Part shown: positions 1-53,924 of the stretch, piece by piece
How the letters are laid out: each line of letters opens with the position of its first letter
How positions within the stretch are numbered: position 1 is the first letter of the stretch
NCBI GenBank assembly: GCA_963930775.1
Contig: OZ005694.1
Coordinates: 1,612,001-1,676,000, forward strand
Source: Cliona cf. orientalis
Lineage: Eukaryota > Porifera > Demospongiae > Clionaida > Clionaidae
Direction: 5' to 3'
Length of the DNA stretch: 64,000 nt
The notes under the pieces: generated by a model
What the model was told of the DNA's origin: nothing
The model's database searches: none
The model's input: the letters and a program-made list of their open reading frames with translations, nothing else
Position numbers and translations under genes: made by a program

Positions 1-2175
1 AACTGGGGTTACTAGGAGTTTATACCCGATACAACCATACTGATTATACGAATTATAATCAGATGTTATTTTCTTGATCCAATTTTCATAATTAAAGATA
101 TCAGATTCTGTTGGTTTATTGCTAATGACAAAAGTTACTGGCAGAGATGATGGTTGCAACATTAAAACTTCATAATCACGTTTTGAGTAAACTGTATAGT
201 TAAAAGGAACACATTTTCCACTGTCAATTACTAATTTGGGTTTGTCTTGTTTTGAATGAGAATCTGGATAAAGGTATCTGGCATGGATTGTACCAACTGC
301 AGTGCCGAAATCATAACCCACTATACACACTGGTAATGTGATGGTTTCACCACGATAAACACGGGTATTGGTGAAAATGTATGAGATATTAGCACACTGT
401 GGTTTACCATCGGAGTCACAAAGACACACACGCTGAGGAGCAGAGGATACTGGAGATAGGATCTCATTGAGGCCAGGGTCAAAGGAGATGTTAACATAAC
501 CTTCAGGTTCTTCGTATATATAAGAACAGTGAGGTTTACCTTGTCCATTCACAGAAATTATTATATCTCTAGAACATGAATAATCCCTTACACTTGCTCC
601 ATACATGTGATGACCAACACCACGTTGTGCATAATTTCTAATAAAAGATACTTTAGCAGAGTAGTCTGTAATCATGAATATACAAGGTTGTGAAGACTGA
701 GAATACACTGCTCCACCAACATCAAATGCTGTGTTGTTGATAAACTGAATACTCGACTGATATCCCATTGTGGTCATAAGTAAAGATGGCATGCTACTAT
801 AGACAGCACCTCCTTGAAATGCAGAGTTGTTGAAAAGGATTAATTTAGTATAATTACCAACAATGATAGTGGGATGGACACCTTCTTGTATAAAAATTGC
901 ACCACCTCTCTTTTGTGCAGAATTCATAATGAACTGTACTAATATTTTAGTACTAATGACCATAGTTCCATACAAAAACCCTATTGCTCCTCCACTGCTT
1001 GATGCTCTATTGTCATAAAATTCAATACCACTTGAGTTTACATGAACAATTGAATTCAATAATCTTAGAGCTCCTCCAACATTTGCAGAATTGTGGCTGA
1101 AAATCAGGTTTGCTTTTTGCTCAACAATCAATGTTCCATGGTCGAGCCCAATCGCTCCACCGCCCCCGTATGCATGGTTGTAAGTAAATATCACAGATGA
1201 TTCAGCACCTACAGTGATCATTCCATCCCACAATTTCACCGCTCCACCAATTCCATAATCTCTGACAGTATTATACATAAAGATCACCGTTGCTTTAGTA
1301 TCAATGTGCATCATTGCACCCCACCCATACACTGCTCCTCCGCCACCACTGCATGTTAGGTTGATAAAGTACACAATTGCACCTGTTGTGATGTTAAGTG
1401 AAGATTTGAGCTTAGGGTGAGTGGTTTTTAGATGCACTGCTGTACTTGTCGAAGAGTGGATCACTTTAGTACTGTTGGTAAAGTTTACATTTCCTGCTAA
1501 TGTTACTACACTAGAAAAGGCAACAATAATTGAATGTGATCGATGTCTGTAGGACTGAAATGTGCTGTTGCTTACAATTATCCCATCACTAAGGTTACTC
1601 CTAATAAAGCAGTTTTCTTTGAATGTACAGTTGTCCAATAAAGCTTGTGAGCCTCTTCCTGCAATATAGATGAAGGATAATCTTTCATTTATGCCAGGGT
1701 AGCCATAGAGGTTGGAATTCTTCACTGTAATGTAGCTCTCTATAGAATTTATTGCAGGACATCTCATGGTCAGGGTTGTGATGTTCACAAAGCTGACATT
1801 GAAGAACTGAATAAGTGTGCAATTGGGTTTACCAACTTGCATACCAAACTGATGGTCAATTATGACATTTTCTGTGGATTCCTCAGTTCCTTTCATGACA
1901 AATGAGTGAAAATTTTGTACAACCAAGTCCTTTGTATAGTTGTGGACTCCACACATGAATATCAGTGTTACATTGACGTGGTGTGGTAAAAAGAACTCAC
2001 TGCTATGCTCGGTTAAGTAGTCCATTGTGTAGCAGAGCTGACCAGACGGGCAGCTACTGTTTCCAGGGCAAGAGCTGAGATACTTCACTGGCTTGACATA
2101 GTAGACCTTACCCTCAGATAGCCTGATGCAAATTGATCCAAATATCAGGATGAAGAAAAGAGACAATAGTCTCAT
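1..2175 (-). CDS. PMP-like beta-helix / multi-pass membrane protein, copy A (3' end off window)
   Basis: I read this frame codon by codon from the ATG at 2175 to base 1; it is open throughout (725 codons), with no stop inside the window. It starts MRLLSLFFILIFG, a signal peptide. A Cys-containing N-terminal region follows (SCPGNSSCP, MCGVHNYT), then eight GGA(I/V/L) rungs with F-x-x-N turns between about residues 280 and 500. Next come a GKPHC variable stretch, the CLCDSDGKPQC block and the IVGYDFGT block. The Cys-rich juxtamembrane block and membrane helices lie beyond base 1. The ATG was chosen because MRLLSLFF is shared by copies D, E and G. There are many N-x-S/T sites, as expected of a secreted ectodomain. 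The promoter at 2351-2357 serves it. Function is unknown; a surface receptor is the inference. Family call is strong by comparison with the other copies. Confidence 0.85.
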   Translation of the reverse strand, partial: MRLLSLFFILIFGSICIRLSEGKVYYVKPVKYLSSCPGNSSCPSGQLCYTMDYLTEHSSEFFLPHHVNVTLIFMCGVHNYTKDLVVQNFHSFVMKGTEESTENVIIDHQFGMQVGKPNCTLIQFFNVSFVNITTLTMRCPAINSIESYITVKNSNLYGYPGINERLSFIYIAGRGSQALLDNCTFKENCFIRSNLSDGIIVSNSTFQSYRHRSHSIIVAFSSVVTLAGNVNFTNSTKVIHSSTSTAVHLKTTHPKLKSSLNITTGAIVYFINLTCSGGGGAVYGWGAMMHIDTKATVIFMYNTVRDYGIGGAVKLWDGMITVGAESSVIFTYNHAYGGGGAIGLDHGTLIVEQKANLIFSHNSANVGGALRLLNSIVHVNSSGIEFYDNRASSSGGAIGFLYGTMVISTKILVQFIMNSAQKRGGAIFIQEGVHPTIIVGNYTKLILFNNSAFQGGAVYSSMPSLLMTTMGYQSSIQFINNTAFDVGGAVYSQSSQPCIFMITDYSAKVSFIRNYAQRGVGHHMYGASVRDYSCSRDIIISVNGQGKPHCSYIYEEPEGYVNISFDPGLNEILSPVSSAPQRVCLCDSDGKPQCANISYIFTNTRVYRGETITLPVCIVGYDFGTAVGTIHARYLYPDSHSKQDKPKLVIDSGKCVPFNYTVYSKRDYEVLMLQPSSLPVTFVISNKPTESDIFNYENWIKKITSDYNSYNQYGCIGYKLLVTPV

Positions 2176-2400
2176 ATTTTTATTATATATATTCTATTTT
2201 CACTGTTTAGTTATATGGCAACAGCCAATGGATCCAGATATTAAGATTAGTGCTTTTTAAGAAGAGTGAGAGATCCTGAGAAGGTTCATGCACAGACACG
2301 CAGCAGCGAGACTCAATCTGACTAGTGCAATAGAACTCAGTCACTGTGACTTAAATACAGCAGGTCAAGCGTGGGTGCATGGTAGGGTAGGGTATAATGA
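2176..2400 (-). promoter_or_regulatory. Conserved promoter and 5' leader of copy A
   Basis: Read on the minus strand, this block holds TATTTAA (2351-2357), then a GTCACTGAGTTC stretch, a TCAGATT initiator-like site and a GC-richer leader with CGCTGCTGCGTG, ending at the ATG at 2175. The same block precedes copies D, E, G and the broken copy near 47280. Retention in so many copies suggests a real core promoter with a leader of about 110-140 nt. The transcription start is inferred from TATA spacing only. Confidence 0.55.
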
Positions 2401-3453
2401 TGATTTTCAAATAATGGTGTAAGAACCAGGGGAGCTGGGAGGACTTCAGCCCTATGATTCAAAATATTGGGGGGCTTAGCCCCCTCCCCAGTGAAATTCC
2501 TCTACCCAATATTATGTGCTCTAGTATACTAATTACTTTATTTTGGTTGAGTTAGGCTTTTACAGGTACAATATGACCAGCTGTGAAAAAAGGGACCCTT
2601 TGTGTTTGTTGTATATATATATAATATGTAGCTTATTGTAATAGTGTGTATGGAGCATACATACAATACATGACATTGTATAATTATGATACATGTACTG
2701 TTGGTGTATCCGCTCTTTGTTAGTGTCTATACACTGATACAAGTATACTCACTACTACATCTGTAGAAAGCAAACTGGCCATTGTCATGATAAAATTGGT
2801 CGTGTTTCATACTATTACCATGAATGGTCCCTTTCTTAGAGCAAATCACATACTGGTATTAATTTTGCTCAGAATATTATAATTTAATTAATATTATTAT
2901 AGCTCTAAGAAGATGTGAAAATCTAAATTTGTCCTGGGGAGCATATCAGATTTGTGGCGGGCATAGCCTGCCACAGCTATGTATATCTATTTAAAATTTT
3001 CGATTACTATTCTCAGTCCCTCTACTCCAAAACATCTTCTGACGCAACTGTCAAAGTTCTTGGCCATGGGACATAAATTAGGAGAGTTTGGATAATTACA
3101 AGAAATTTTATTTTATACCTTGTGATAAAAATTTTTAAGACTTGGTCGAACTTTTCACTTGGGTTCCTCCCCGCTAATAATAATAATATTATGAAAAATC
3201 CCAAAATTAATACTGATAGTCCCCTATCTCAAAGTTGGTCACATCAAATATACTGCTTGAGTCATGCATTTAATATCCTTGAAGTTTCCTTATAGGAGTA
3301 ATTTACATGTAACTTTACATTCTAATATACACTATAATACCAGCCAGCAGGCTGGAATACTAATCTGCCAGTCCGTCAATTTAATAGAAACATAATATTA
3401 TAGTTATAATGTACAGTATACTGTTCTATGACTAATTATTAATATAGGAATAG
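2401..3453. repeat. 5' spacer of the duplicated unit
   Basis: No gene seen. The stretch recurs upstream of copies B and D (about 15525-16230 and 25540-26500). Shared landmarks are AACCAGGGG...CTTCAGCCC with GGGGGGC (2430-2500), AAAGGGACC(C)TTT, TCTGTAGAAAGCAAACTGGCC and GTTCTTGGCCATGGGACAT. It marks how far the tandem duplication extends beyond the gene. Confidence 0.6.
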
Positions 3454-11607: not shown

Positions 11608-14600
11608 TCATTTTGTGTATTTAGCAGAAGCTGGCATGGTAATGGGCCGAGGAGTATCATTGATCAGCGGTTCAAGTTCAGGATCTTCAATTCGCTCATG
11701 AGCGATATCATCTTCATCAATGACGTCATGGCCTTGATTTTGTCTGCACCTCCAACCAGCACTGATATAAGGCTTGATCAAACTCCACACAACAATGACA
11801 CAGAATTGAGCAAAGGTGATTCCAATCGACACCATAAGCAATTTTGATCTAGATTCGATAGATTCCCATCTGTACAGAGTTCCAGAACTTAAGATAATAA
11901 GGTTCAGTAAGATAATGCTTTCTAGAATTCTCACATTTACTCGCTTGTAGACATATTTAACAGATGTGAAGAAAAATAAGAAAGCTATGAAAAGGAAGAG
12001 TGCATATATGTTTAGTTCAGGATCGTCCACTGAAGTTACTGTCAATAGGGCCAGGAGTACTCCTCGAATAAGAAGCATTGCTCCAAACCAATATTGGTGT
12101 TTGTCCTTCAAAGGAGAGAAGTAAGCATCGTAGACAGGGGCTAGCTTGTTGATCCACTTGAGTGGCCTTAGATGAGACACTCTCCTCAAAGGCTGAATGA
12201 ACAGAAGCACGAGTGTGTAAGGAAGCCACAGAAACACAAGAGTAGCAATGGCCGCTACGAAAAGGTAAATATGAGGGTGCTGGCAGTAGTATAGGTTTCC
12301 ATCGAGGTACCACACAGCATAGGAGGTGTTCTGTGGGTACTGTGCTACTACTGCAACTGAGCTGGCATCTATCACAGTACGAAGGAGCTTCATGTAAGAG
12401 AGAAGGAAGAGTGTGGCTAGAAGAGGAACAGCTCTGCTACCGATGAGGTTAGTGAGGCGAGAGGAGTAGCGGCAAGCAACAATGGTAACACCAGCAATGG
12501 CCCACACGTAGAATGGGAATAGAAACTGCAGCCATGTCTTCCAATAAGCATCCAGTCCAACAAAGAAGCAAGTCTCAATTCCAAAATCCAAATTGAGCCA
12601 GGCAATAAAAACTTGGAGAAACGTGAACAAATAATTTGCTCCAATGTCTGCGGGAAAGAGTATTATTTTGTAGGCCCATACAATATTAGCATAGAAGATG
12701 ACTCCATTAATGAGTCCTTGAGTGGCAGTGAGGTTGAGTGCAAGGATAAAGAATACAACAAGGACACCAGCAGCAGCAAAAGCAAGAAGGAGCGCCACGT
12801 TATGACTGTTGGGACATTCAATGCACCGAGAAGATCCAATTGCCAGGCTATAGCTGTCCATGCAGGCACCACACAGGATGCCAGTTCGGTTGGAGGCACA
12901 CTGCTTACTGGGATCTTTTCCAATGTTGACTGTCTTGTTACCTGACTTGCAGTAGAGTAGAGGACAGAATCTGTTGTACATGATACCAGTGCTATGACCC
13001 TCATTGAAGGTTGCATTCACCCACACAGTGCCGTTCCACTGCAGGAGACCAGTTCTGTTTTTTACTAAACAACTGAAGCCATTGTTAGCCAAGACAGGAT
13101 AACAGCTGCATGTGGTTCCATCATGATTTAGAATCAGTCCTGGAGGGCAGCCTGGGAGTAAGGTGATATTTATGAGAATTGGGGTTGCTAGGAGTTGAAG
13201 CATGATACAACCAGACTGACTATGCGAAATATAATCAGATATTTGACCTTGGATCGTATTTTCATAGTTGAAGATATCATTATCTGTTGATTCATTGCTA
13301 ATGTAACTAGATACTGGCAGAGATGATGTTTGCAACAATAAAAGTTCATAATCACGTTTTGAGTAAACTGTATAGTTGAAAGGAACACATTTTGCACTGT
13401 CAGTTACCAGTTGCGATTTATCTTGTTTTGAGAAAGAATCTGAATAAAGGGATCTGGCATGGATCGTACCAACTGTAGTGCCAAAGTCATAACCCACTAT
13501 ACATGCAGATAATGTGATGGTTTCACCACGATAAACACTGGTATTGATGAAAATGTATGAGATATTAGCACACTGTGGTTTACCATTGGAGTCACAGAGA
13601 CACACACGCTGAGGAACAGAAGATACCGGAGATAGGGTCTCATCGAAGTCAGGTTCAAAGGAAATGTTTAGTTCACGGTAGGAACCTTCATCTGGAAGAA
13701 AACAGTGAGGTTTTCCTTGTTCATTCACAAAACTTATGAAATATGCAGAACATGCCTTATCCCTTACACTTGCTCCATACATGTGGTGACCAACACCGCT
13801 TCGTGCATAGTTTCCTGTAAAAGATATTTTAGCGGAGTAGTCTGTGATCATGAATATGCAAGGTGGTGAAGACTGAGAATACACTGCTCCACCAACATCA
13901 AATGCTGTGTTGTTGATAAACTGAATACTCGACTGATATCCCACTGTGGTCATGAGTAATGATGGCATGGTACTATAGAGAGCACCTCCTTGGAATGCAG
14001 AGTTGTTGAAAAAGAGTAGTTTGGAATAATTACCAACAATGATAGAGGGCTGGACAGCTATTTCTATATTAATTGCACCACCTTTCACTTGTGCAGAGTT
14101 CATAGCGAAATTTACTGATGTATTGGTGTTCATAATCATGGTTCCATAACAAAAATTTATTGCTCCTCCATATGGTGCTCTATTGTTATAAAATTTGATA
14201 CCACTTGTGTTCACATGAACAGTTGAATTCACTGATTCTAGAACTCCACCATTCGAAGTTGCACAATTGTGGCTAAAAATCAACTTTGCTTCACTATTAA
14301 TAATCAATGTTGCACTGTGAAGCATAATTGCTCCACCGAATATAGCATGGTTGTATGTAAATATCACATATGAATCAGTGCCTACGGTGATCATTCCATC
14401 TAACATGGACACTGCTCCACCACTCACATCAGCGGTATTATTCATAAAGATAGCCCTTGCTTTGGCAGCAACGTGCATCATTGCATTAAGCCCATACACT
14501 GCTCCTCCATTACCACCGCATATTAGGTTGATAAAGCACACAGTTGCTCCTGTTGAGATGTTAAGTGAAGATTTAATCTCAGGGTGAGTGGTTTCTAGAT

Positions 14601-15339
14601 GCATTGCTGTACCCGATAAAGAGTGGATCGTACCATTGGTAAAATTCACATTTCCTACTAATGTTACTACACTAGAAAAGGCAGCAATAATTGAATGTAA
14701 TCGATGTCTGTAGGACTGAAATGTGCTGTTGCTCACAATTATCCCATCACTAAGATTACTCCGGATAAAGCAGTTCTCTTTGAATGTACAGTTGTCCAGT
14801 AAAGCTTGTGAGCCTCTGCCTGTAATATTAATGAAGGATAAGCTTTCATTTATGGCAGGGTAGCCATATAGGTTGGAACTCTTCACTGTAATGTGGCTCA
14901 TTTCAAGATATAATATTGCAGGACATCTCATTGTCACAGTTGTAATGTTCACAAAGCTGACATTGAAGAACTGAATAACTGTGCACTTGGGTTTATCAAC
15001 TTGCATACTGAACTGATGGTCAATGATGACATTCTCTCTGGATTCTGCAGCTCCTTTCATGACAAATGAGTGGAGGTTTTGTACAGCCAAGTCCTTTGTA
15101 TAGTTGTGGACTCCACACATGAATATCAGTGTTACATTGATGTGGTCTGGTGAAAAGAACTCACTGCTATGCTCAGCTAAGTAGTCCATTGTGTGACAGA
15201 GCTGACCAGGTGGGCAGCTGCTGTTTCCAGGGCAAGAGATAAGATGCTTTACTGGCTTGATATAGTAGACCTTACTCTCAGTTAGCCTGATGCAAATTGA
15301 TCCAAATATCAAGACGAAGAAAAGGGACACCAGGGTCAT
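11608..15339 (-). CDS. PMP-like beta-helix / ten-pass membrane protein, copy B (intact)
   Basis: Single open frame of 1243 codons. Residues 1-20 are a signal peptide. About 275-490 hold eight GGA(I/V/L) rungs with FxxN turns, spaced 27-29 residues, as in Chlamydia Pmp-type right-handed beta-helices. About 560-600 is the GKPHC variable stretch and CLCDSNGKPQC. About 735-760 is LPGCPPGL and CSCYPVLANNGF. CGACMDSYSL near 830 precedes the membrane. Hydrophobic helices follow at roughly 847-870, 877-895, 903-919, 937-956, 970-985, 1024-1049, 1085-1104, 1112-1127, 1140-1156 and 1167-1189. The tail (1190-1243) contains IAHERIEDPELEPLI. The frame runs 99 codons further upstream, but MTLVSLFF aligns with the MRLLSLFF starts of the sister copies, and upstream is leader. 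Function unknown; a cell-surface receptor is inferred. Confidence 0.85.
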   Translation of the reverse strand: MTLVSLFFVLIFGSICIRLTESKVYYIKPVKHLISCPGNSSCPPGQLCHTMDYLAEHSSEFFSPDHINVTLIFMCGVHNYTKDLAVQNLHSFVMKGAAESRENVIIDHQFSMQVDKPKCTVIQFFNVSFVNITTVTMRCPAILYLEMSHITVKSSNLYGYPAINESLSFINITGRGSQALLDNCTFKENCFIRSNLSDGIIVSNSTFQSYRHRLHSIIAAFSSVVTLVGNVNFTNGTIHSLSGTAMHLETTHPEIKSSLNISTGATVCFINLICGGNGGAVYGLNAMMHVAAKARAIFMNNTADVSGGAVSMLDGMITVGTDSYVIFTYNHAIFGGAIMLHSATLIINSEAKLIFSHNCATSNGGVLESVNSTVHVNTSGIKFYNNRAPYGGAINFCYGTMIMNTNTSVNFAMNSAQVKGGAINIEIAVQPSIIVGNYSKLLFFNNSAFQGGALYSTMPSLLMTTVGYQSSIQFINNTAFDVGGAVYSQSSPPCIFMITDYSAKISFTGNYARSGVGHHMYGASVRDKACSAYFISFVNEQGKPHCFLPDEGSYRELNISFEPDFDETLSPVSSVPQRVCLCDSNGKPQCANISYIFINTSVYRGETITLSACIVGYDFGTTVGTIHARSLYSDSFSKQDKSQLVTDSAKCVPFNYTVYSKRDYELLLLQTSSLPVSSYISNESTDNDIFNYENTIQGQISDYISHSQSGCIMLQLLATPILINITLLPGCPPGLILNHDGTTCSCYPVLANNGFSCLVKNRTGLLQWNGTVWVNATFNEGHSTGIMYNRFCPLLYCKSGNKTVNIGKDPSKQCASNRTGILCGACMDSYSLAIGSSRCIECPNSHNVALLLAFAAAGVLVVFFILALNLTATQGLINGVIFYANIVWAYKIILFPADIGANYLFTFLQVFIAWLNLDFGIETCFFVGLDAYWKTWLQFLFPFYVWAIAGVTIVACRYSSRLTNLIGSRAVPLLATLFLLSYMKLLRTVIDASSVAVVAQYPQNTSYAVWYLDGNLYYCQHPHIYLFVAAIATLVFLWLPYTLVLLFIQPLRRVSHLRPLKWINKLAPVYDAYFSPLKDKHQYWFGAMLLIRGVLLALLTVTSVDDPELNIYALFLFIAFLFFFTSVKYVYKRVNVRILESIILLNLIILSSGTLYRWESIESRSKLLMVSIGITFAQFCVIVVWSLIKPYISAGWRCRQNQGHDVIDEDDIAHERIEDPELEPLINDTPRPITMPASAKYTK

Positions 15340-17620: not shown

Positions 17621-18611
17621 CGCAGGTCTAAAGGTTACGTGAAGGTGGGAGGGGAGGACGAAGTGGGAGGAGAGGACGAGGGGGAAGAGGACGAAGCGGG
17701 GGGAGGTGGAAAAAGAAAACAGGAGACCTTGTAAAGGACTTAATAGTAAAGTATGCCACCAACCTATATTATTATATCAATATTACATATTATTATTATT
17801 ATTATCAGATCAAAAACTGCAAGGTTACCATTAACTTGGCCGAACATCATCATACATCTTATAATATTATATTTATTGTATCACTAAACTATTACTCTTG
17901 TGCATTATGTACAGCAATATTTATTACTATTATTATTATCAGTCTTGATATTCTGCCACAGCAACGTTATGTTACACGTACACTAAAGCAGCTGCAGTCA
18001 ATGCGCATGCGCATACATGCGCGCGCACATTAAATATTATTATTACATGACGTCATTCAGTCCTGCGCATGCGCGTGAGAGTATACACGTACCAATTGGA
18101 CAGTATGCAATTATCATTGACAAAAAAAAAGAGACAACAGGAATAAAACAATGAAATTGAAGGATGAAGTAGAGATGGCAGGATCAAAAAGTACACAAAC
18201 AAGATTTGTAAGGCATAAGCATCTGCTATACATCCCTTCAATTCGCTTGCTTTTCTCAATTATAAGCACCTATTAATGTTGATATATTTGTTGAGTGTGG
18301 CATGTGGGAGACATTGGCATGCAGGTTAATTGCCACGGTTCCCTGGTTGTTACGATGGTTCGGGATAGTCAGTTTTGATTCAGTTGCATTATTCTTGCAC
18401 CCCTCAAAAAGCAAGCGTATACAGGGATGTATAGCAGATGCTTATGCCTTACAAATCTTGTTAAACTTTGTGTACTTTTTGACCTACTTCATCCTTCAAT
18501 TGTTTTTATACTTGTTTCTGTTCTTTTTTATTGCTCTTAGCCTATTCATCAATGCCAATATATATGGCTTGCTCATTCAACTCTCACTGTGTAATTAAGT
18601 AGCTAATAGAT
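17621..18611. repeat. Spacer with inverted repeat and purine-rich tract
   Basis: No gene seen. 17640-17710 is a GGGAGGxGAGGACGA purine tract. 17780-17950 is TTA-rich microsatellite. About 18140-18260 and 18400-18525 are inverted copies of one sequence, also present at 4100-4210, probably arms of a non-autonomous element; the two small open frames here both come from these arms. Confidence 0.5.
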
Positions 18612-33393: not shown

Positions 33394-33570
33394 TGTTGGA
33401 AAGTGTATATCTTCTATCTTCACAGTTTATGTGACAACGACCAAGAGATAAGTGCTTCTCAAGAAAAGTGGGAGATCCTGTAAAGGTGCATGCACAGACA
33501 TGCAGCAGCGAGACTCAATCTGACTAGTGCAACAGAACTCAGTGACTTAAATACAGTATGTCATGCATGG
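33394..33570 (-). promoter_or_regulatory. Promoter and leader of copy E
   Basis: TATTTAA at 33547-33553 is followed by GTCACTGAGTTC, TCAGATT and the shared leader down to the ATG. Spacing from box to ATG is about 155 bp. Confidence 0.5.
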
Positions 33571-36764: not shown

Positions 36765-38505
36765 GCAGAAGCTGGCATGGTAATGGGCCGAGGAATAAAA
36801 CTGATCAGCGGTTCAAGTTCAGTCTTCAATTCGCTCGTGAGCAATATCATCATCATTATAATTATCATCATCAGTGACAGCGTCATTACCTTGACTTTGT
36901 CTGCACCTCCAACCAGCACTGAGGAAAGGCTTGATCAAAATCCACACACAAATGACACAGAACTGAGCAAAGGTGATTCCAATTGACACCATAAGCAATT
37001 TTGACCTTGATTCAGTAGATTCCCACCTGTACAGAGTTCTAGCACTCAAGATAATAAGGTTAAGTAAGAGAGCGCTTTCTATAACTCTCACATCTACTCA
37101 CTTGTAAACATTCTCAATTGATATGAAGAAAAATATGAAGGCTATGAACAGTAACAGAGCAAACACATTCAGTTATGGATAGTCCACTAAAGTTACTGTC
37201 AATAGAACCAGGAGAATTCCTCGAACAAGAAGCATTGCTCCAAATCAGTATAGGTGCTTATCCTTCAAAGGAAAGAAGTAAGTATGTATTGTAGATAGGG
37301 GCTAGCTTATTGATCCACTTGAGCAGCCTTAGATGAGACACTCTCCTCAAAGGCTGAATGAACAGAAGAAGGAGTGTGTAGGGAAGCCACAGGAACACAA
37401 GAGTAGCAATGGCCGCTATAAAAAAGGTAAATGTGAGGGCGCTGGCAGTATCGTAGATTTCCGTTAAGGTACCACACAGCATAGGAGGTGTTCTGTGGGT
37501 ACTGTGTTATCACTGCAACTGATGTGGCATTTATCACAGTACGAAGGAGCTTCATGTAAGATAGAAGGAAGAGTGTGGCTAGAAGAGGAACAGCTCTGCT
37601 ACCAATGAGGTTAGTGAGATGAGAGGAGTAGCGACAAGCATTAATGATAACACCAGCAATGACCCAGATGTAGAATGGAAATAAAAACTGCAGCCATGTC
37701 TTCAAATAAGCATCCAGTCCAACAAAGAAGCAAGTATCGATTCCAAAATCCAAGTTGAGCCAGGCAACAAAAATATGAAGAAATGTGAATAAATAGTTTC
37801 TCCAGTGTCTGCAGGAAAGAGTATTATCTTGTAGGGGCACCCATACAATATGTTAGCATAGAAGATGATCGATTCCGTTAATGAGTCCTTGAGTGACAGT
37901 GAGGTTGAGTGCAAGGAAAAAGAACACAAGGAAAACACCAGCAGCAGCAAAGGCAAGCATGAGCTCCACGTTATGACTGTTGGGACATTCAATGCACCGA
38001 GAAGATCCAATTACCAGGCTAAAGTTGTCCATGCAGGCACCACACAGGATGCCGGTTCGGTTGGAGGCACACTCTTCACTGGGATCATCTCCAATGTTGA
38101 CTGTCTTTTTGCCTGATTTGTAGTAGCTAGAGTACGGGGCAGAATTCATTGTACATGATATCAGACTGGGTGCTATGACCCTTATTGAAGGTTGCGTTCA
38201 CCCACACAGTGCTGTTCCACTGCAGGAGACCAGTTTTGTTTTTCACTAAACAACTAAAGCCATTGTTAGCCAAGACAGGATAACAGCTGCGTGTAGTTTC
38301 GTCATGATTTAGAGTCATTCCTGGAGGGAAATCTGGGAGTAAAGTGATATTTATGAGAACTGGGGTTGCTAGGAGGTCAGTATCGATACGACCATGATGA
38401 CTATATGAAACACAATTAGATATTCGTTCCTTGATGAAAAAATTTTCATAGTAGAAGATATCATATTCTACAGTTGATTCGTTGCTAGCTAATGGTAGAA
38501 GATAC
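36765..38505 (-). pseudogene. PMP-like receptor pseudogene F (C-terminal half)
   Basis: Covers the cytoplasmic tail, the helices, the CGACMDNFSL block and the CPPG region up to the second variable segment. It breaks near 38505 where the sequence changes to the GTGGCTCAGTAGCTGGTCAAG repeat. The beta-helix and N-terminus are absent. There are multiple frame changes (about 37095, 37280, 37410, 37800, 37845, 38130 and 38320) and small insertions. Residues around the helices still match copies E and G closely, so the decay is moderate. Confidence 0.8.
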
Positions 38506-39109
38506 TGGCTAGTGTGGCTCAGTAGCTGGTCAAGCGTGGGTGGTAGAGAGATTAAGAAGCCATGACAAGCAGTGGCGTGGTTTTGTAGGGGGGGTTAAGG
38601 ATACTTACTAAGCTTAGTCAGGACTACAGATCAGCACATACCCGGCACACTGAATCTATTTGCACAATAATGAAATACATTTTTTTTCAAAGATCTTGAC
38701 TAATTCACTAGTCACTCAATGACATATGCCTAGACCTTGAAGTGTGGTAATTTTTGTGCTCGATTAATTAATTGCTTTACCCCGCCCCGGCGAATTGGTT
38801 ACAGATCAACCCCCTAGCAACGCCACTGACAATGACATCAAGGTGATAGCATCCCATAATTAAGCACATTGAGGGTGCTAAAGGCCTGAGAGTCTCTTAA
38901 GATTGTAGATCCTATTGGATGAGGTAGCTATTTAAAATATTGCAACTGTAACCATGACAGCATGAAAAGTTTAAACATAATAATAATATTATTATAATGA
39001 AAGTGCTTCAAATACAGTCCTTTTTTTATAATAATTTCTGCTCAAAATAGAACAGCAGTTAACATGAATAGCTGGCAATACCTAAACTAGCATGACATTG
39101 TAATCTATG
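38506..39109. repeat. Spacer of degenerate repeats
   Basis: No gene seen. 38520-38600 is the GGGTGGTAGAGAGATTAAGAAGCCA repeat. 38860-38960 is a degenerate GAGTCTCTTAAG foldback copy. Confidence 0.45.
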
Positions 39110-40380: not shown

Positions 40381-40490
40381 AGCGTGGTAATGGGCTGAGG
40401 AGTATAATTGATCAGCCGTTCGAGTTCAGCATCTTCAATTCGCTCATGAGCGATATCATCATCATTTAACTCACCTTGGCAATGCAACTA
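40381..40490 (-). pseudogene. Receptor cytoplasmic-tail scrap
   Basis: The minus strand encodes IAHERIEDAELERLI and the PITT(L) codons of the tail, bounded by a CCAAGGTGAG-type edge at about 40473. It is the twin of 28655-28735 with the same flanking repeat, so the scrap was duplicated together with its spacer. Confidence 0.55.
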
Positions 40491-41425: not shown

Positions 41426-44400
41426 TCAAGGAGTATCACTGATCAGAGGTTCAATTTCAGGATCTTCAATTCGCTCATAAGCGATGTCATCATCATCAAT
41501 AATACCATGGCCTTGATTTCGTCTGCACCTCCAACCAGCACAGAGATAGGGCTTGCAATTGATTAAACTCCACACAACAATGACACAAAATTGAGCAAAG
41601 GTGATTCCTATTGACACCATAAGCAATTTTGACCTTGATTCGGTAGATTCCCACCTGTACAGAGTTCCAGAACTCAAGACAATAAGGTTCAGCAAGGTAG
41701 AACTTTCTAGAACTCTCACGTCTAAACATTTTTGATTGATATGAAATAAAATAAGAAGGCTATGAACAGAAATATTGCAAACACATTCAATTCTGGGTTG
41801 TATACTGAAGTTACTGTCAATAGAATCAGGAGTAATCCTCGAATAAGAAGCATTGTTCCAAACCAGTATCGGTGCTTATCCTTCAATGGAAAGAAGTAAG
41901 CATCGTAGACAGGGGCTAGCTTATTGATCCATTTGAGTGGCCTTAGATGAGACACTCTCCTCAAAGGCTGAATGAACAGAAGCAGGAGTGTGTAGGGAAG
42001 CCACAGGAACACAAGAGTAGCAATGGCCGCTACGAAAAGGAAAATATGAGGGCGCTGGCAGTAGCGTAGGTTTCCATCAAGGTACCACACAGCATAGGAG
42101 GTGTTCTCTGGGTACCGTGCTATCACTGCAACTGATGTGGCATCTATCACAGTACGAAGGAGCTTCATGTAAGATAAAAGGAAGAGTGTGGCTAGAAAAG
42201 GAACAGCTCTACTGCCGATGAGTTTTGTGAGGCGAGAGGAGTAGCGGCAAGCAACAATGATAACACCAGCAATGGCCCAGATGTAGAATGGGAACAGAAA
42301 CTGCAGCCATGTCTTCCAATAAGCATCCAGTCCAACAAAGAAGCAAGTCTCGATTCCTAAATCCAAGTTAAGCCAGGCAATAAAAACTTGAAGAAATGTG
42401 AATAAGTAATTTGCTCCAGTGTCTGAGGGAAAGAGTATTATCTTGTAGGCCCATACAATGTTAGCATAAAAGATGACTCCATTAATGAGTCCTTGAGTGG
42501 CAGCGAGGTTGAGTGCAAGGATCAAGAACACAAGGAGGACACCAGCAGCAGCAAAGGTAAGCAGGAGTGCCACGTTATGACTGTTGGGACATTCAATGCA
42601 CCGAGAAGATCCAATTGCAAGGCTAAAGTTGTCCATGCAGGCACCACACAGGATGCCGGTTCGATTGGAGACACACTGCTTGCTGGGATCATCTCTAATG
42701 TTAACCGTCTTGTTGCCTGACTTGCAGTAGAGTAGGGGACAGAATCTGTTGTACATGATACCAGTACTGTCACTCTCATTGAAGGTTGCATTCACCCACA
42801 CAGTACCATTCCACTGCAGGAGACCAGTTATATTATTTACTAAACAAGTGAAGCCATTGTTAGCCAAGACAGGATAACAGCTGCATGTGGTTTCATCATG
42901 ATTTAGAGTCAGTCCTGGAGGGCGACCTGGGAGTAAGGTGATATTTATGAAAATAGGGGATGTTAGGAGGTCATTGTATATGCAACCAGACTGATTATAC
43001 GAATTATAATAAAGTATTTGACTCTTGATCACATTTTCATAGTGGAAGATATGTTCTGTTGATTCAATGCTAATCAAACCAGATACTGGCAGAGGTGATG
43101 TTTGCAACAGTAAAATCTCATAATCACGTTTTGAGTAAACTGTATAGTTAAAAGGAACACATTTTTCACTGTTGATTACTTGTTGGGATTTATCTCGTTT
43201 TAAGTGAGAATCTGAATAAAGGGAACTGGCATGGATCGTACCAACTGTAGTGCCAAAGTCATAACCCACTATACATGCAGGTAATGTAATGGTTTCACCA
43301 CGATAAACACTGGTATTTGTGAAAATATATGAGAAATTAGCACACTGTGGTTTACCATTGGAGTCACAGAGGCACACACGCTGAGGACCAGAGGATACCG
43401 GAGATAGGGTCGTATTGAATTTGATGCCAGAATCAAAGGAGATATTAATGTACCCATCAGGTTCTTCACCTTGAACCAAACAATGAGGTTTTCCTCGTTC
43501 ATTCACATAGCCTATGAAACTACTAGAACATGAGTAATCCTTTACACTTGCTCCATAAATGTGGTGACCAATACCATATTGTGCATAGTTTGCTATAAAT
43601 GTTACTTTAGCGGAGTAGTCTGTGATCATGAAAGTACAAGGTGGTGAAGACTGAGAATACACTGCTCCACCAACTTCAAATGCTGTGTTGTTGATAAACT
43701 GAATACTCGACTGATATCCCACTGTGGTCATGAGTAATGATGGCATGGTATTATAGAGAGCACCTCCTTGAAATGCAGAGTTGTTGATAAAGAATAATTT
43801 GGAATAATTACCAACAATGATAGCCGGGTGGACACCGGTTTCTATATAAATTGCACCACCTTTCATTTGTGCTGAATTCATAATGAATTTTAATGATTTA
43901 TTAGTGTTAATAATCATTCTTCCATACGTAAAAAATATTGCTCCTCCAACTGATGCTCTATTGTCGTAAAATTCAATACCACTTGTGTTCACATGAGCGA
44001 TTGAATTCTGTAATAATAGAGCTCCACCACCTTTGACTGCATGGTTGTGTTTGAATATCACAGATGATTCAGCACCTATAGTAATCATTTCACCCAAAAT
44101 GATCACCGCTCCACCAGACAAACCAGCAGTGTTATTCATAAAGACCACACTTGCTCTAGCACCAATGTGCATTATTGTATTCCCTCCATACACTGCTCCA
44201 CCACCGCTACATGTTAGGTTAGGTTGACAAAGTACACAGTTGCAAACGTTGTGATGTTAAGTGAAGATTTGAGCTCAGGGTGAGTGGTTTGTAGAAACAC
44301 TGCTGTACCAAATGAAGTAATTGAAGAAGGGATCCCTGTAATACTGTCAGTAAAGTTTATATTTCCTGTTAATGTTACTGCACTAGAAAAGGCAACAATA

Positions 44401-45038
44401 AGTGATTGATCTTTATGTCTATATGACTCAAATATGCTATTGCTGACAATTATCCTATCACTACAATAACTTCTAACAAAGCAGTTCTCTTTGAATGTGC
44501 AGTTGTCCAGTAAAGCATGTGAACCTCTACCTGTAATATTTATAAAGGACAAACTATCGTTTATGCTAGGGTAGCCATAGAGTTTGGAGTTCTTCATTGT
44601 AATGTAGCTCTTTTCAAGATATATTGCAGGACATCTCATCGTCAGAGTTGTAATCGTCACAAAGCTGACATTGAAAAAGTGAATTAGTGTGCAATTGGGT
44701 TTATCAACAAACTGATGGTTAATGATGACATTCTCTCTGGATTCTTCAGCTCCTTTCATTACAAATGAGTGAAGATTTCGTACAACCAAACCCTTTGTAT
44801 AATTGTGGACTCCACACATGAATATCAGTGTTATATTGACGTGGTCTGGTGAAAAGAACTCACTGCTATGCTCGACTAAGTAGTCCATTGTGTGGCAGAG
44901 CTGACCAGGTGGGCAGCTGCTGTTTCCAGGGCATGAGATGAGAGGCTTTACTGGCTTTACATGGTAGACTGTACCCTCAGTTAGCCTGACACAAATTGAC
45001 CCAAATATCAAGATGAAGAGGAGAGATAGCAGCCTCAT
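41426..45038 (-). pseudogene. PMP-like receptor copy G, nearly complete, two frameshifts
   Basis: Starts MRLLSLLFILIFGSICVRLTEG at 45038. The first break is a tandem TAGGT duplication at about 44214-44223 (GTTAGGTTAGGTTGAC where sisters have GTTAGGTTGAC). It lies just before the first rung. The second is a 10-bp loss at about 41722-41728 (GTCTAAACATTT versus GTCTACTCGCTTATAAACATTT in copy E) between helices 8 and 9. Between them 823 codons are open, covering the rungs, Cys block and eight helices. This copy has seven rungs rather than eight: the third is missing in frame. Otherwise well preserved; a recent pseudogene, null allele or sequencing artefact. Confidence 0.75.
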
Positions 45039-46039: not shown

Positions 46040-47280
46040 TACATTTCGAGTATATTTTGGTATCTGGTAAACCACAGAATTGTTGAAAAAGAGTAATTTG
46101 GAATAATTACCAACAATGATAGAGGGGTGGACACCTGTTTCTGTATAAATTGCACCACCTTTCACTTGTGCTGAATTCTTAATGATTTATTAGTGTTACT
46201 AGCTATTAATGCTTCCATACGTAAGAATTCATAGTAAACTTCACTGATATATTAGTGTTAATATGAATAATTTCCATTGTTCCTCCAGATGTCATTGCTC
46301 TATCATCATAAAATTCTATACCATTTGTGTTTATATGAACATTTGAATTTTCTACAACTAAAGCTCCTCCATAATCTGCTGAGTTGTGGTTGAAATTGAG
46401 GTTTGCTTCATTATCAACAATCAATATTATACTTTGAAGATAAACTGCTCCTCCAGCTGCGGTATGGTTGTATTATTGGAATATCACACATGATTCAGCA
46501 CCTATAGTAATAATTTCACGGTCCTCCATGAATAGGCCTGGGCCAAATATTCGTGAATAATTTTTTTGAATAAGTAAACTTCTCAAGGAAGTATTGTGCA
46601 TATACACAATGTGTGCTTAAAATAGAAAACTTTGTGTCATTTGATATGAGTCTGTGATCAAATGGAGGAAGCACTTGAGCAAACAGTTCAGATAACTAGT
46701 TCAGGTAACTAGTTGGTGATCATTTTTGGGAGTGCTGAAAGTTCCTTTAGCCTTAAAAGAAAAAAAAATTCATGTAATCCAGCACTTGTTGGCCAAAGTG
46801 TACATGTACAATGTCATTCTGGTCATATTCATGTTTCATTTGCATTTTGTCAACTTTTTTTTAATGTCAGACTAACTAAGGATAGGGTACCGGTGTACCA
46901 TGTCAAGTCAGTAAAGCCTCTCAGCTCTTGCCCTGGAAACAGCAGCTGCTCACCTAGTCAGCTATGTCTACATCACTACAGGTGCAATTGTGTACTTAAC
47001 ATGTATTAGTTATGGAGGAGCAGTATCTGGGGGAATGCAATGATGCACATTGGTGCTAAAGTAAGGGTGGTCTTCATGAATAATACTGCTTATTTACTTT
47101 GTATACTTCTGCTATGCGTGTTGGAGTGATGTTTGTGGGCCAAATATTCCTTTAGATTTGCCAATTATTCAGGTAATTATTCTTCACTTATCTACCCCAT
47201 TATTCAAGAGAAAGTAATCTATTAACTATTTTAAATTGACTCAAATATCAAGATGAAGAGAAGAGATAGCAGCCTCATTG
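46040..47280 (-). pseudogene. PMP-like receptor pseudogene H with internal inversion
   Basis: The pieces lie in an order that only an inversion explains. The signal peptide (MRLLSLLFILIFESI) is on the minus strand at 47277-47231. The continuation (VRLTKD..VYHVKSVKPLSSCPGNSS, then a deletion joined to GAIVYLTC and GGAV...MMHIGAKVRVVFMNNTA) is on the plus strand at about 46866-47095. The following rungs resume on the minus strand from about 46520 down to 46080 (ITIGAESCVIF, NHNSADYGGAL). The inverted block is roughly 46530-47228. All downstream domains are missing. Confidence 0.7.
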
Positions 47281-47460
47281 TCGAGCTATTTTTTCGCAGC
47301 TTATGTGTATACCTACAACAATAAACAATTAAGAGATAACAAGAAGAGTAAGAGATCCTGCAAAGGTGCATGCATAGACACACAGCAGCGAGACTCGATC
47401 TGACTAGTGCAATAGAACTTAGTGACCTAAATACAGCAGCTAGCAGACAGCGGGGCACTT
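47281..47460 (-). promoter_or_regulatory. Leader and promoter relic of pseudogene H
   Basis: The shared leader with a TATTTAG box (47427-47433) in the usual position. It now drives only a broken gene. Confidence 0.4.
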
Positions 47461-49899: not shown

Positions 49900-51672
49900 T
49901 GTATTTAGCAGAAGCTGGCACGGTAATGGGCCGAGGAGTATCATTGATCAGCGATTCAAGTTCAGGATCCGGCTTCAGTTCGCTCATGAGTGATGTCATC
50001 ATCATCAATGATGTTATTGCCTAGATTTCGTCTGCACCTCCAGGCCCGTACACAGGGGGGGTTCGAGGGGGTTCGGAAGAATCCCGCTTTTTTTCCAACC
50101 TAGCATAGCACTAGAAACAATTCAGGTGTAACCTTACATGCTTCTTTACAAAACGAAGTGTTACTTTCCAAATAACCCACACCGGTTGTGCAATAGATTG
50201 CATTGCCAGTGTACATATTATTGCTATTAGCTAGCAGCATCAGCCAGCCTATGTATAAAATTTGGAATTGTTAATGACTGTCAGAATGCCTCAGAATCCC
50301 CCTCAAAGAGTCTAAATTTCCAAATTTTTCTGAAGTAGCATGCCCCCAGACCCCCCCTAGGTGGGCTGTGGGCTAATGCCAACAGCATACCTGTCTGACC
50401 CACGCCCCCATGTAACCCCCCCCCCCCCCCTTGAGAAAGGCTGCGTACGGGCCTGACCTCCAACCAGCACTGAGGCTTAATCAAACTCCACACAACAATG
50501 ACACAGAATTGAGCAAAGGTGATTAGAATTGACACCATAAGCAATTTTGACCTTAATTCAGTAGCTAGATTCCCACCTGCACAGAGTTCCAGAACTCAAG
50601 ATAATAAGGTTCAGCAAGGTAGAACTTTCTAGAACTCTCACATCTACTCGTTAAAAAACATTTTTGATTGATATGACATAAAATAAGAAGGCTATCAAAA
50701 GAAATAGTGCAAACACATTCAATTCTGGGTTGTATACTGAAGTTACTGTCAATAGAACAAGGAGTAGTCCTCGAACAAGAAGCATTGTTCCAAACCAGTA
50801 TCGGTGCTTATCCTTCAAAGGAGAGAAGTAAGCATCGTAGACAGGGGCTAGCTTGTTGATCCACTTGAGTGGCCTTAGATGAGACACTCTCAAAGGCTGA
50901 ATGAACAGAAGCAGGAGTGTGTAGGGAAGCCACAAGAATGTAAAAGTAGCAATGGCTGCTACGAAAAAGTAAATATGAGGGTGCTGGCAGTAGCGTTGGT
51001 TTCCATTGAGGTACCACACAACATAAGAGTTGTTCTGTCGGTATCGTGCTATCACTGCAATTGAGAAGGCATATTAGCTATATCACAGTACGAAGGAGCT
51101 TCATGTAAGATAGAAGGATGAGTGTGACTAGAAGAGGAACAGCTCTGTTACCGATGAGGTTAGTGAGGCGAGAGGAGTAGCGGCAAGCAACAATGATAAC
51201 ACCAGCAATGACCCAGATGTATAGAAACTGCAGCCATATCTTCCAATAAGCATCCAGTCCAACAAAGAAACAAGTCTCGATTCCAAAATCCAAATCGAGC
51301 CAGGCAATAAAAACTTGAAGAAATGTGAATGCTCCAATGTCTGCAGCAAAGAATATTATTTTGTAGGCCCATAAAATGTTAATATTGAAGATGACTCCAT
51401 TAATGATTCCTTGAGTGGCAGTGAGGTTGAGTGCAAGGATAAAGAACACAAGGAGGACACAAGCAGCAGCAAAGGCAAGCTGGAGTGCCACGTTATGACT
51501 GTTGGGACATTCAATGCACCGAGAAGATCCGATTGCCAGGCTAAAGCCTTCTATACAGGCACCACATAGGATAGCTACCAGTTCTATTGGAGGCGCACTG
51601 CTTGCTGGGATCATCTCCAATATTAATTAATTGATTGTCTTGTTACCTGACTTGCAGTAGAGTAGAGGACGG
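49900..51672 (-). pseudogene. PMP-like receptor pseudogene (C-terminal half), split by a transposon
   Basis: The tail and final helix (49900-50040) are separated by a 415-bp element from 50456-51672, which holds helices and the CGACIEGFSL block. Frame breaks occur at about 50570, 50655, 50890, 51065, 51215, 51320 and 51570; several are short in-place deletions inside helices. Homology stops at about 51672 (GTAGAGTAGAGGAC). No ectodomain is attached. Confidence 0.8.
50041..50455. mobile_element. TIR element (CAGGCCCGTAC ends) in receptor tail
   Basis: Ends CAGGCCCGTAC and GTACGGGCCTG are exact inverted copies, and ACCTC is duplicated on both sides (50036-50040, 50456-50460). Removing the element and one ACCTC restores the family sequence, which proves the insertion. 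G/C runs lie inside each end. No transposase; 415 bp. Confidence 0.85.
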
Positions 51673-52064
51673 GTTGGTGTAAAACCTGGACTCTGGACTG
51701 GACTCATGGACTGGACTATGGACTGAGATTTAGACTCGATTTTGGACTGATGGGCAGGGTAATGACGACCATTTCCAAGAGACTATGGATAGAAGGCACG
51801 GTAGCTACTACAACTGCAAGCTAGGCTAGTCACAAGCAGTCTTGTACGTAAACAATGATAGAGGGGTGGACACCTACTTCTATATAGATTGCACCACCCT
51901 CCACTTGTGCTGAATTCATAATGAGTTTTAATGATTTAGCTATTAATATTTACTACTGAGCCTTGTTTCCTAGGTAATAAGCAGGAATTATATTCCATAT
52001 CATACTTCCCATGGGGCAATACGTTCGATATGAAGATATCATACTTCCCCCAGGGGGGCACTTG

Positions 52065-52143
52065 TAGCCTCGTTCCCAGGCTCCCCCTCTCCTTTTCTCA
52101 CTTTTTTTCGCGCGCGAATATTACACGCGAAAAAACGAGGCTA
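52065..52143. mobile_element. Short foldback MITE with 9-bp target duplication
   Basis: TAGCCTCGTT at the left and AACGAGGCTA at the right are inverted. GGGCACTTG is duplicated exactly on both sides. Long (9-bp) duplications point to Mutator-like mobilisation. A related hairpin lies at 54878-55000. Confidence 0.65.
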
Positions 52144-52663
52144 GGGCACTTGAGCCAATCACAGTTGAGATCTTGCATAGCAACTGAGCAAGTGTAAAAT
52201 GCACTTGGAAACAACTCAGCAGTTGAACTTGAGAAATTGTATTGCATAAGTTGAATGCACACACATAGGAGAACACATTACAGTAGCAGACATTGCCATA
52301 CCACCACAAAGTATTTCAATTAGGTCGCTTGTGTAAACAAAGTGGGAGGAGCTATCTCTAACTAGTGCACACCTCCTATAGAGCAGCTGCGAAGTCTGTC
52401 TGTTTTGTGATGAGTTCTAGTAGCTGTATACATGGATACTGTGACTAACAAACGATGAGAACCTGAACTAAAGTTGACCTGTAAGGTACTATGCTACTCT
52501 GGAATAGTTTTTAGCTGTTTAGGTTGTCATACAATGAGCTTGATAGTGTCCAGTGACAGACTACAAGTTTTACTAGCTAGCTACTTCATTTCTACTTTCA
52601 AATTTTGGTTAGTTTTGTTTCTAGGTACTGAATGCGTAACCTAGACGATCAGTAGTAAATATA

Positions 52664-52781
52664 TTAGTGATTCACTGGTTGCCAAGGAATTATGGCAACG
52701 TAAACAAACCTCACCCTCGGGCTGCGCCCTCGGGATCGGTTCGTTTACTGCCATAATTCCTTGGCCCCCAGTGAATAACTA
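52664..52781. repeat. Long hairpin with CCCTCGGGC apex
   Basis: CCAAGGAATTATGGCA in the left arm pairs with TGCCATAATTCCTTGG in the right; arms are about 45 bp with few mismatches. The apex CCCTCGGGCTGCGCCCTCGGG resembles the apices at 55412, 61685 and 62730. Confidence 0.65.
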
Positions 52782-53140
52782 TAGTGTATTGATAATTATA
52801 GTTCCATAAAACAACACTATTGCTCCTCCAAATTTCATTACTTTATTATTGTAAAATTCCATACCATTTGTATTCACATGAATAGTTAAATTTATTAACC
52901 TTAGGGCATTGTTGTATATAAATGTGATGTATGATTCAACACCTACAGTGATCATCCCATCCTCTATTGACACCGCTCCACCTAAATATTCAGCAGAATT
53001 ATTCATAAAGACTACCCTTGCTTTAGCAGCAACGTGCATTGTTGCATAATCCCCAAACACTGCTCCTCCATAATTGTTACATGTTAGGTTGACAAAGTAC
53101 ACAGTTACACCTGTTGTGATAATAAGTGAAGATTTGAGCT

Positions 53141-53924
53141 ACCAATGGCTCGTATCGTGTGCATGATCCTGTAGTACCTCGTGGCGCGAGTCACAAGCTT
53201 CACTGTCCATGGCAAGGACCATTTAAAATTGTACAACGTATCGGTAATGTCTTGTACAAGATTCAAGATGAAAAGAAGCTAAAGAAATGTAGAGTTGTAC
53301 ACTTCAACCGACTTAAGCCTTTCAGGCAACGTCCCGAATCGCTGACATCCCCCATGCCCCTTGCGCCCAGGCAAAGTATTTCTGAGGAGTCCGACAGTGA
53401 CAGCGACAACAGTGAGCTAGAATCCCCTTCTGCAAGCTCTGACAGTGAAAGATAACTCTGGGGATCAGGCAGATTCTCTCACACGGCCATCCACTACAGA
53501 CAACTCAAATCCCGAGGTTGCCGAAGAACCGGCACCCGTGTTGCGTCGCTCTATATACACGATAAAGACGTCAGCCACACTGGTATGGAAACGTCACCAT
53601 ATGCATGCAAACGGAACTCGATGACTAGTGCGAGGACGCACATCATTCTCACATGGAGGCCGAGGGGAATAATGTAACAAACTAAAACAAGCTGAACAAT
53701 GATTCCAGACCAAGCTGTTTCTTGTTTGTGTGTGACTTAATTAGTGTTCTGTGACCCTGGCTGTCTGTAAGCAGCCCTTACACTTTATCATGTTTTATGC
53801 ATAGCACCTTAAGTAAGTATATAAGCACAGTGTGATTTCTGACTACTATCTCTCTATCTATATCTGAATCTCTAAACATCACTATTTCGGGCTACAAGCC
53901 CTGTGTGAACAGTACGGGATTACA
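53141..53924 (+). mobile_element. Ty3/Gypsy LTR retrotransposon, 5'-truncated
   Basis: An open frame to 53455 encodes the C-terminal end of a Gypsy integrase/pol: CPWQGPFKIVQRIGNVLYKI and KCRVVHFNRLKPF, then an acidic Ser/Asp/Glu tail. A polypurine stretch (GGAGGCCGAGGGGAA, 53656-53670) precedes the 3' LTR 53673-53924, which starts TGTAACA, ends GGGATTACA and contains TATATAA (about 53818-53824). Gag, protease, reverse transcriptase, RNase H and the 5' LTR are absent, so it cannot move by itself. Confidence 0.8.

What the first reader, a model, noticed from the sequence alone, without database searches (positions are those of the whole stretch)
1..53141. Tandem array of sponge beta-helix / ten-pass membrane receptors in birth-and-death turnover
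About eleven copies of one gene family lie head to tail on one strand. They range from intact through single-frameshift to scraps, all carrying the same flanks. The proteins pair a Chlamydia-Pmp-like GGA(I/V)...FxxN beta-helix with a C-terminal ten-helix domain. Recent duplication, decay and an exposed repeat ectodomain are what a polymorphic recognition locus would look like. Function is inference.
Basis: partly seen in the sequence, partly recalled or inferred. Interest (0 to 1): 0.8.

Follow-up and report, generated by a model that had tools for sequence, protein, structure and literature searches.

The report
Mosaic beta-helix membrane protein gene cluster
This stretch is one piece of a very large, apparently animal, gene family for cell-surface proteins whose outer part is built from fast-changing coils that are gained, lost and traded on a slowly changing membrane anchor, a design that looks suited to recognising many different things, although what they recognise is unknown.

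Summary
The tandem array is real: 12 loci, all minus strand except one small inverted piece. Three frames are open (A, C, G), two long copies are broken (E, J), seven are scraps. PMP-type repeats pass the Pfam cutoff. "Ten-pass" is probably wrong: ten hydrophobic segments, but charges favour nine crossings with a cytosolic tail. The window lies in a 217-Mb assembly where three capped searches found at least 171 loci with the same membrane domain, 54 of them within 0.85 Mb around the window. Across 21 chosen intact paralogues the membrane segment keeps 342-345 residues (omega 0.28) while the coil array differs by roughly whole coils (-1 to +2; omega 0.71). Outward and turn positions change 15-18 times faster than the GGA/N scaffold. 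Ectodomain and membrane-domain distances are uncorrelated, so genes exchange segments. This fits birth-and-death plus gene conversion of a cell-surface recognition family. Omega above 1 is not shown; ligand and signalling are unknown; individual variation could not be tested. Collagen domains suggest an animal; "sponge" is plausible, not proven. Ten literature searches, several with only the top rows listed, showed no description of the family.

The parts
1..2193 (-). Copy A: open reading frame cut by the window edge; complete and open (1253 codons) in the genome
9298..10476 (-). Copy B: scrap, G residues 589-811 and 1082-1242
11608..15339 (-). Copy C: intact intronless gene
18604..20605 (-). 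Copy D: scrap, G residues 30-520, several frames
21581..25305 (-). Copy E: full length with one break (16-bp deletion)
28661..28741 (-). F: scrap of the C-terminal tail, same position relative to G as I is to J
29692..33393 (-). Copy G: intact intronless gene, reference for residue numbering (P0002, numbered from the ORF start at 33423)
31849..33021 (-). Copy G residues 135-525: predicted beta-helix, the only part of the model with usable confidence
   Evidence: PF02415
32134..32556 (-). Copy G residues 290-430: variable coil array, in which paralogues gain or lose about one coil at a time
30862..31014 (-). Copy G residues 804-854: cysteine-rich juxtamembrane segment (sub-threshold DUF7630 match)
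29824..30849 (-). Copy G residues 859-1200: membrane domain, ten hydrophobic segments, nine probable crossings
29692..29823 (-). Copy G tail with an acidic dileucine-like motif, DPELKPLI (motif class recalled)
36822..38531 (-). Copy H: scrap, G residues 676-1239, several breaks
40398..40478 (-). I: scrap of the C-terminal tail
41426..45038 (-). Copy J: full length with two breaks and about one coil missing
46075..47439 (-). K: gutted copy with promoter-proximal flank, signal-peptide start and a helix fragment; 46866-47090 is inverted
49934..53156 (-). L: scrap in pieces, membrane domain well kept, helix fragment at 52785-53156, end meets a retroelement

Best explanation
The window is part of a large, reshuffled family of intronless cell-surface membrane proteins. 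Each protein is exported by a signal peptide, displays a long beta-helix outside the cell, and is anchored by a conserved membrane domain of about nine crossings with a short cytosolic tail that carries an endocytosis-type sorting motif. The GGA(I/V)...FxxN scaffold of each coil is held constant while outward-facing and turn residues vary. Copies gain and lose coils, duplicate in tandem, decay, and exchange segments by gene conversion or unequal crossing-over. The most likely use is recognition: each copy binds a different surface or soluble ligand (microbe, food particle or another cell) through its coil array, and the constant membrane domain passes on or internalises the signal. Shown here: sequence architecture, array, lower bound on copy number, coil gain and loss, site-class rates, mosaicism. 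Inferred: signal peptide (hydropathy only), topology, cell-surface location, ligand binding, endocytosis, biological role.
For: PMP repeats and a beta-helix model for residues 135-525. At least 171 loci, 54 in 0.85 Mb. In 21 chosen intact ORFs: omega 0.71 (0.58-0.87) for residues 231-430 against 0.28 (0.23-0.34) for the membrane domain; dN 0.018 scaffold, 0.123 inward, 0.324 outward, 0.277 turns; near the same with 10 disjoint closest pairs and with the open window copies A, C, G. Coil segment 121-207 residues while the membrane segment is 342-345. Spearman -0.10 to 0.11 between distances in residues 231-430 and in the membrane domain; an identical 60-codon tract between genes 9.3 Mb apart. 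Shared tracts longer than permutation allows in window copies; site-pattern support shifts along the gene in 3 of 5 quartets. Tail on the cytosolic side by charge.
Against: No region or site class has omega significantly above 1: all seven regions lie below 1 with their limits; in the small five-copy sets residues 641-735 (1.04, 0.62-1.99) and turns (1.32, 0.78-2.35) reach 1 but include it. Relaxed constraint on surface residues could give these rates. Two of five quartets show no shift, and silent sites alone support only two tracts. No ligand, expression or individual data. The membrane domain could not be modelled (pLDDT 38) and matches no PDB sequence, so a transport or channel role is open. 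Inward and outward positions were assigned by alternation in the model's strands after the variability table had been printed.
Confidence: 0.5

Rival explanations
1. A channel or transporter family: the conserved multi-helix domain does the work and the beta-helix is a protective or regulatory cap whose surface drifts under relaxed constraint.
For: The membrane domain is among the slowest parts (omega 0.28) and is still 51-55% identical between distant subfamilies; omega is not significantly above 1 anywhere.
Against: Drift alone does not explain why large length changes fall in the coil array in the 21 intact genes or the segment exchange. No known transporter match.
Confidence: 0.22
2. An endocytic capture or adhesion family (feeding or scavenger receptors): coils bind bacteria or particles and the acidic dileucine tail drives uptake.
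For: The tail motif is kept in 18 of the 20 loci whose frame ends were printed (L052 altered, L042 truncated before the tail); cytosolic tail by charge; many of the beta-helix proteins in the weak Foldseek list act on glycans (50 of 98 matches shown).
Against: The fold matches are not significant (best E 0.21). The motif's role is recalled, not tested here.
Confidence: 0.2
3. Mostly a by-product of unequal crossing-over in a repeat-rich region: an expanding array with little function.
For: Seven of 12 loci in the window are scraps; duplicated flanks and dispersed repeats.
Against: Purifying selection on the membrane domain and scaffold in 21 intact copies (though these were chosen for being intact); long open frames on many contigs.
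Confidence: 0.08

Closest known systems
Chlamydia polymorphic membrane proteins (Pmp, PF02415 / TIGR01376)
   Same: GGA(I/L/V)...FxxN repeats above the curated cutoffs; multigene family with a variable passenger (Pmp biology recalled)
   Different: Hydrophobic helical segments in place of an autotransporter beta-barrel; in an apparently animal genome; coil number varies between paralogues
Sponge aggregation factor and other invertebrate allorecognition gene families
   Same: A polymorphic genetic system is expected for graft recognition (PMC5450542, passages read)
   Different: No Pfam domain other than Chlam_PMP passed its cutoff in the long ORFs; no allelic or graft data here
Variable lymphocyte receptors and LRR repertoires (recalled)
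   Same: Constant scaffold residues, variable exposed residues, variable number of repeat modules
   Different: Beta-helix coils instead of LRRs, multi-pass anchor, germline paralogues; somatic assembly not tested
DUF7630 / Ephrin_rec_like cysteine-rich segments
   Same: Weak match at the juxtamembrane cysteines (E 0.0014 in G, 0.33 in C)
   Different: Below the curated cutoffs

Membership tests
Chlamydia Pmp | PMP repeats above the curated cutoff | tested here: met
   PF02415 33.9-50.6 bits against 20.6 in 4 of 7 proteins scanned; the two N-terminal fragments and P0007 were negative; TIGR01376 in 2 of 3; L040 positive, P0008 (no helix fetched) negative
Chlamydia Pmp | C-terminal autotransporter beta-barrel | tested here: not met
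   No barrel family matched; the C-terminus is ten hydrophobic segments
Parallel beta-helix | Regular coils of short strands | tested here: met
   Model residues 135-525, pLDDT 50-92 per ten-residue block, strand pattern with a period near 28. Handedness was not measured. Foldseek lists many beta-helix proteins but no match is significant
Seven-helix GPCRs | 7tm family match | tested here: not met
   None at E up to 10 for the membrane domains of G and C (HMMER filters drop most matches above about 0.1)
TRP / polycystin-type channels | Sequence match to Pfam or PDB members | tested here: not met
   fold comparison not possible, the model is too poor
Allorecognition locus | High allelic variation between individuals that predicts fusion or rejection | not testable with these tools
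   One assembly only
Birth-and-death multigene family | Tandem intact, broken and relic copies of different ages | tested here: met
Animal (sponge) gene family | Genome of a sponge | tested here: inconclusive
   COLFI domains, 26 of 29 matches over the cutoff, suggest an animal; the control genomes named in these searches are prokaryotes, so 'animal only' is recalled. The silicatein lead decided nothing

The most novel reading that the evidence does not exclude
A germline-encoded recognition repertoire of well over 170 genes and relics in an early-branching animal whose specificity is written in beta-helix coils: coils are added, lost and traded between genes by gene conversion while a fixed membrane domain signals, a histocompatibility or microbe-sensing system independent of Ig, LRR and NLR folds.
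Probability: 0.2. Interest if true: 0.9.

Novelty: new variant of a known kind. Interest (0 to 1): 0.64.

Why it matters
The genes behind self/non-self and microbe recognition in sponges and other early animals are poorly known; one graft study of Amphimedon saw no significant enrichment of genes for aggregation-factor-mediated adhesion (PMC5450542, passages read). A family of at least 171 loci with a fixed membrane module and a shuffled, coil-built ectodomain is a concrete and testable candidate, and would be an example of a repeat-built recognition surface that is neither Ig nor LRR.

Tried and rejected
No relatives in viral contigs or genome contigs, at the sensitivity of short exact patterns. 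PDB sequence search of P0002 (E up to 1) and of the stalk-plus-membrane profile A2 (E up to 10): nothing. Membrane-domain structure: pLDDT 38, not used. Foldseek of the whole model: no match with E below 0.2. VIA-align library not available. The 19-position PF02415 model itself, searched over the whole genome, passed E 0.001 at only 2 places, both on C2 and neither in the window (E. coli was the one control of 14 that rang): the model is too short for a genome search, so copy number rests on membrane-domain queries. Positive selection: not shown; the 40-codon window with omega 1.61 is not treated as evidence. Region trees are mostly weakly supported; C with E has bootstrap 100 in residues 331-430 and 1083-1200 but not in 31-330. 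PHI tests and site models were not run. Silicatein as a sponge marker: the one multi-exon cysteine-protease gene read has the ordinary catalytic Cys motif and one exon matches cathepsins and similar proteases (103 matches, 60 shown). Frameshifts as homopolymer error: rejected for E and J.

Rows dropped: scrap L is left out of ectodomain rate statements because its middle does not align (p about 0.55-0.64), and fragments were left out of the group statistics; L042 is left out of the 21 because its frame ends at residue 1084. The 21 intact ORFs are chosen (G and C from the window, 19 of 20 fetched places, one of which, L041, is copy A), taken from the 55 rows for long open frames; not a random sample. 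The 5' core motif (within 6 mismatches of 31) is in 10 of the 20 fetched loci. Sequon at residue 881 would lie on the cytosolic side under the nine-crossing model, against it but next to the membrane; letting segment 5 or 6 be the non-crossing one scores nearly as well (19 inside, 6 outside). Literature: ten searches showed no paper on this family, but four listed only the top of a longer list (20 of 58, 15 of 1,064, 8 of 16, 12 of 4,659); passages only were read in PMC3386278, PMC8078820 and PMC5450542, the rest only as search listings.
Full report
OBSERVATION. The window holds a head-to-tail array of one gene family. Searching the intact copy G against the window and the window against itself gives 12 loci between 1 and 53156. 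C (11608-15339) and G (29692-33393) are intact, intronless ORFs; A is open to the window edge and continues open to 1253 codons in the genome. E has one break and J two; they are indels of 16, 2 and 10 bp, not homopolymer changes. B, D, F, H, I, K and L are fragments. All are on the minus strand except 46866-47090 inside K. F and I are the same tail scrap about 1 kb downstream of G and of J, which suggests that gene plus downstream relic were duplicated as a unit. The last scrap meets a Ty3/gypsy-type integrase C-terminus at 53138-53455, plus strand (PF22938, E 1.2e-13, 1 of 10 ORFs scanned).

PROTEIN. The product reads as a signal peptide (hydropathy only), a beta-helix, a stalk, a cysteine-rich juxtamembrane segment and a multi-helix membrane domain. 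PF02415 repeats score 33.9-50.6 bits against a cutoff of 20.6 in 4 of 7 proteins; TIGR01376 matches 2 of 3. AlphaFold2 on seven window sequences has usable confidence only for residues 135-525 (50-92 per ten-residue block), a beta-helix with a period near 28; mean pLDDT of the whole is 44. Foldseek lists many beta-helix proteins (PL6 lyases, P22 tailspike) but with E of 0.2 or more, so the fold class rests on the repeats and the model, not on that list; handedness was not measured. The membrane domain could not be modelled and has no sequence match in the PDB or in Pfam beyond sub-threshold matches at the cysteines.

TOPOLOGY. There are ten hydrophobic segments. If all cross, 4 K/R are inside and 21 outside; if one of the first four does not cross, 21-22 are inside and 3-4 outside, the loop with the sequon at residue 1016 is outside and the tail is inside. 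Leaving out segment 5 or 6 gives 19 inside and 6 outside. Segment 3, which contains NLD, is my candidate for the non-crossing one (inference). Against it, a sequon at 881 would then be on the cytosolic side, next to the membrane. The tail ends with DPELxPLI or a variant that keeps [DE]xxxL[LI] in 18 of 20 fetched loci (L052 altered, L042 truncated), which reads as an acidic dileucine sorting signal (recalled).

RATES IN THE WINDOW. The long copies differ by an overall dS of 0.21-0.31 over ten pairs, so most of the array is not recent. Among C, E, G and J, omega is 0.20-0.28 in the membrane domain and 0.53-0.86 in residues 231-535. Group values with bootstrap: 0.77 (0.59-1.00) for 231-430 against 0.24 (0.17-0.31) for 856-1215; 641-735 reaches 1.04 (0.62-1.99). 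E and J are broken, but the open copies A, C and G (C and G alone for the membrane domain) give the same picture. Site-pattern support shifts along the gene in 3 of 5 quartets. Shared tracts longer than permutation allows were found for A-E, A-G, C-E and G-J; with silent sites only, E-G and G-J. Region trees are mostly weak; C with E has bootstrap 100 in residues 331-430 and 1083-1200 but not in 31-330.

THE GENOME. After twelve unanswered tries the own-genome search worked: the window is C6:1612001-1676000 of an assembly of 216.8 Mb in 149 contigs. Three queries with membrane domains from three subfamilies gave 106, 109 and 150 rows, in each of which the tool scored only the best candidates; merged they are 171 distinct loci, with 54 on C6:1.450-2.302 Mb, 16 on C2:3.25-3.72, 10 on C6:10.90-10.98 and 9 on C5:9.33-9.41 Mb. 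The union was still growing (104, 134, 171), so this is a lower bound; it counts membrane domains, broken ones included. Of divergent members, L040 has PMP repeats and the start of the membrane domain, L061 the stalk, cysteines and membrane domain (its N-terminal part was not fetched), and L039 PMP repeats in a 511-codon frame. A block of 5.5 kb around G recurs 330 kb away at 98.8% identity: duplication is also recent. COLFI domains (26 of 29 matches over the cutoff; 0 of 14 control genomes, those named in these searches being prokaryotes) suggest an animal (the domain's restriction to animals is recalled). I found nothing that proves sponge.

21 INTACT PARALOGUES. They are G, C and 19 fetched loci, chosen for long open frames. 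The length from residue 285 to 435 is 148-156 in 14, 121-122 in four, and 180, 185 and 207 in one each: plain, about one coil less, about one more (twice; the +35 of L056 is not an exact coil) and two more. The membrane segment is 342-345 in all 21. Adjacent coils in L054 are 91% identical in 81 bp of DNA, which points to intragenic duplication. Omega: N-terminal part 0.44, 231-430 0.71 (0.58-0.87), 431-535 0.42, 536-640 0.59, 641-735 0.62, 736-855 0.27, membrane domain 0.28 (0.23-0.34). Within the coils dN is 0.018 at GGA/N scaffold positions, 0.123 inward, 0.324 outward and 0.277 at turns; omega 0.11, 0.36, 0.74 (0.50-1.09) and 0.89 (0.59-1.23). Ten disjoint closest pairs keep scaffold and inward low and outward and turns high. 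No class is significantly above 1. The inward/outward assignment follows strand alternation and was made after the variability table was seen, so it is not blind.

MOSAICISM. Distances in residues 231-430 do not predict distances in the membrane domain (Spearman -0.10 to 0.11), and no pair of segments correlates above 0.40. C and L048 differ by 2-6% over residues 131-430, yet the nearest membrane domain to C's is that of L041. G and L060, 9.3 Mb apart, are identical over a 60-codon window starting at residue 586. Genes therefore trade segments, also between clusters. Gene conversion or unequal exchange are both possible for neighbours; for distant loci conversion is likelier (inference).

READING. 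Constant scaffold and membrane module, variable exposed positions, variable coil number, large copy number and segment exchange together fit a recognition family best. I give this 0.5, because relaxed constraint with a transport function, or an endocytic capture role, would leave much of the same record, and because there is no ligand, expression or individual data. The resemblance to Chlamydia Pmp is in the repeat and in the multigene variability; it is not a Pmp, since no beta-barrel anchor was found. The resemblance to VLRs is in logic only.

NOVELTY. Tandem receptor families under birth-and-death are a known kind. A coil-built beta-helix ectodomain on a multi-pass anchor, at this scale and this mosaic, is a variant that I did not find described in ten full-text searches of an open-access library, four of which listed only the top of a longer list; most subscription papers are not in it. 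The changes made on checking my calls did not require new odds.

Noticed in passing
53138-53455 (+): C-terminal part of a Ty3/gypsy-type integrase (PF22938, E 1.2e-13) ends the array; described only.
   Followed up: partly
55531-56781 (-): A 416-residue ORF whose weak matches are coiled-coil-like in its C-terminal part, with no family over a cutoff.
   Followed up: partly
61401-61553 and 62834-62990; also 16450-16598 and 8442-8580: A short dispersed element, 95.5% identical as an inverted pair, with diverged copies inside the array.
   Followed up: no
55057-55497 and 61627-62094: Inverted pair of about 0.45 kb, 81% identical.
   Followed up: no
6878-7098 and 7851-7958: 51-bp tandem repeat present in opposite orientations about 1 kb apart.
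   Followed up: no
G000 C16:0.190-0.198 and 4.848-4.863 Mb; C19:4.508-4.580 Mb: Groups of cysteine-protease (PF00112) matches: two with nearly whole domains in single frames, one in exon-sized pieces.
   Followed up: partly
G000 C2:3.25-3.72 Mb: A second cluster of the family, 16 loci; its member L040 has a membrane domain 55% identical to G's over the part held.
   Followed up: partly
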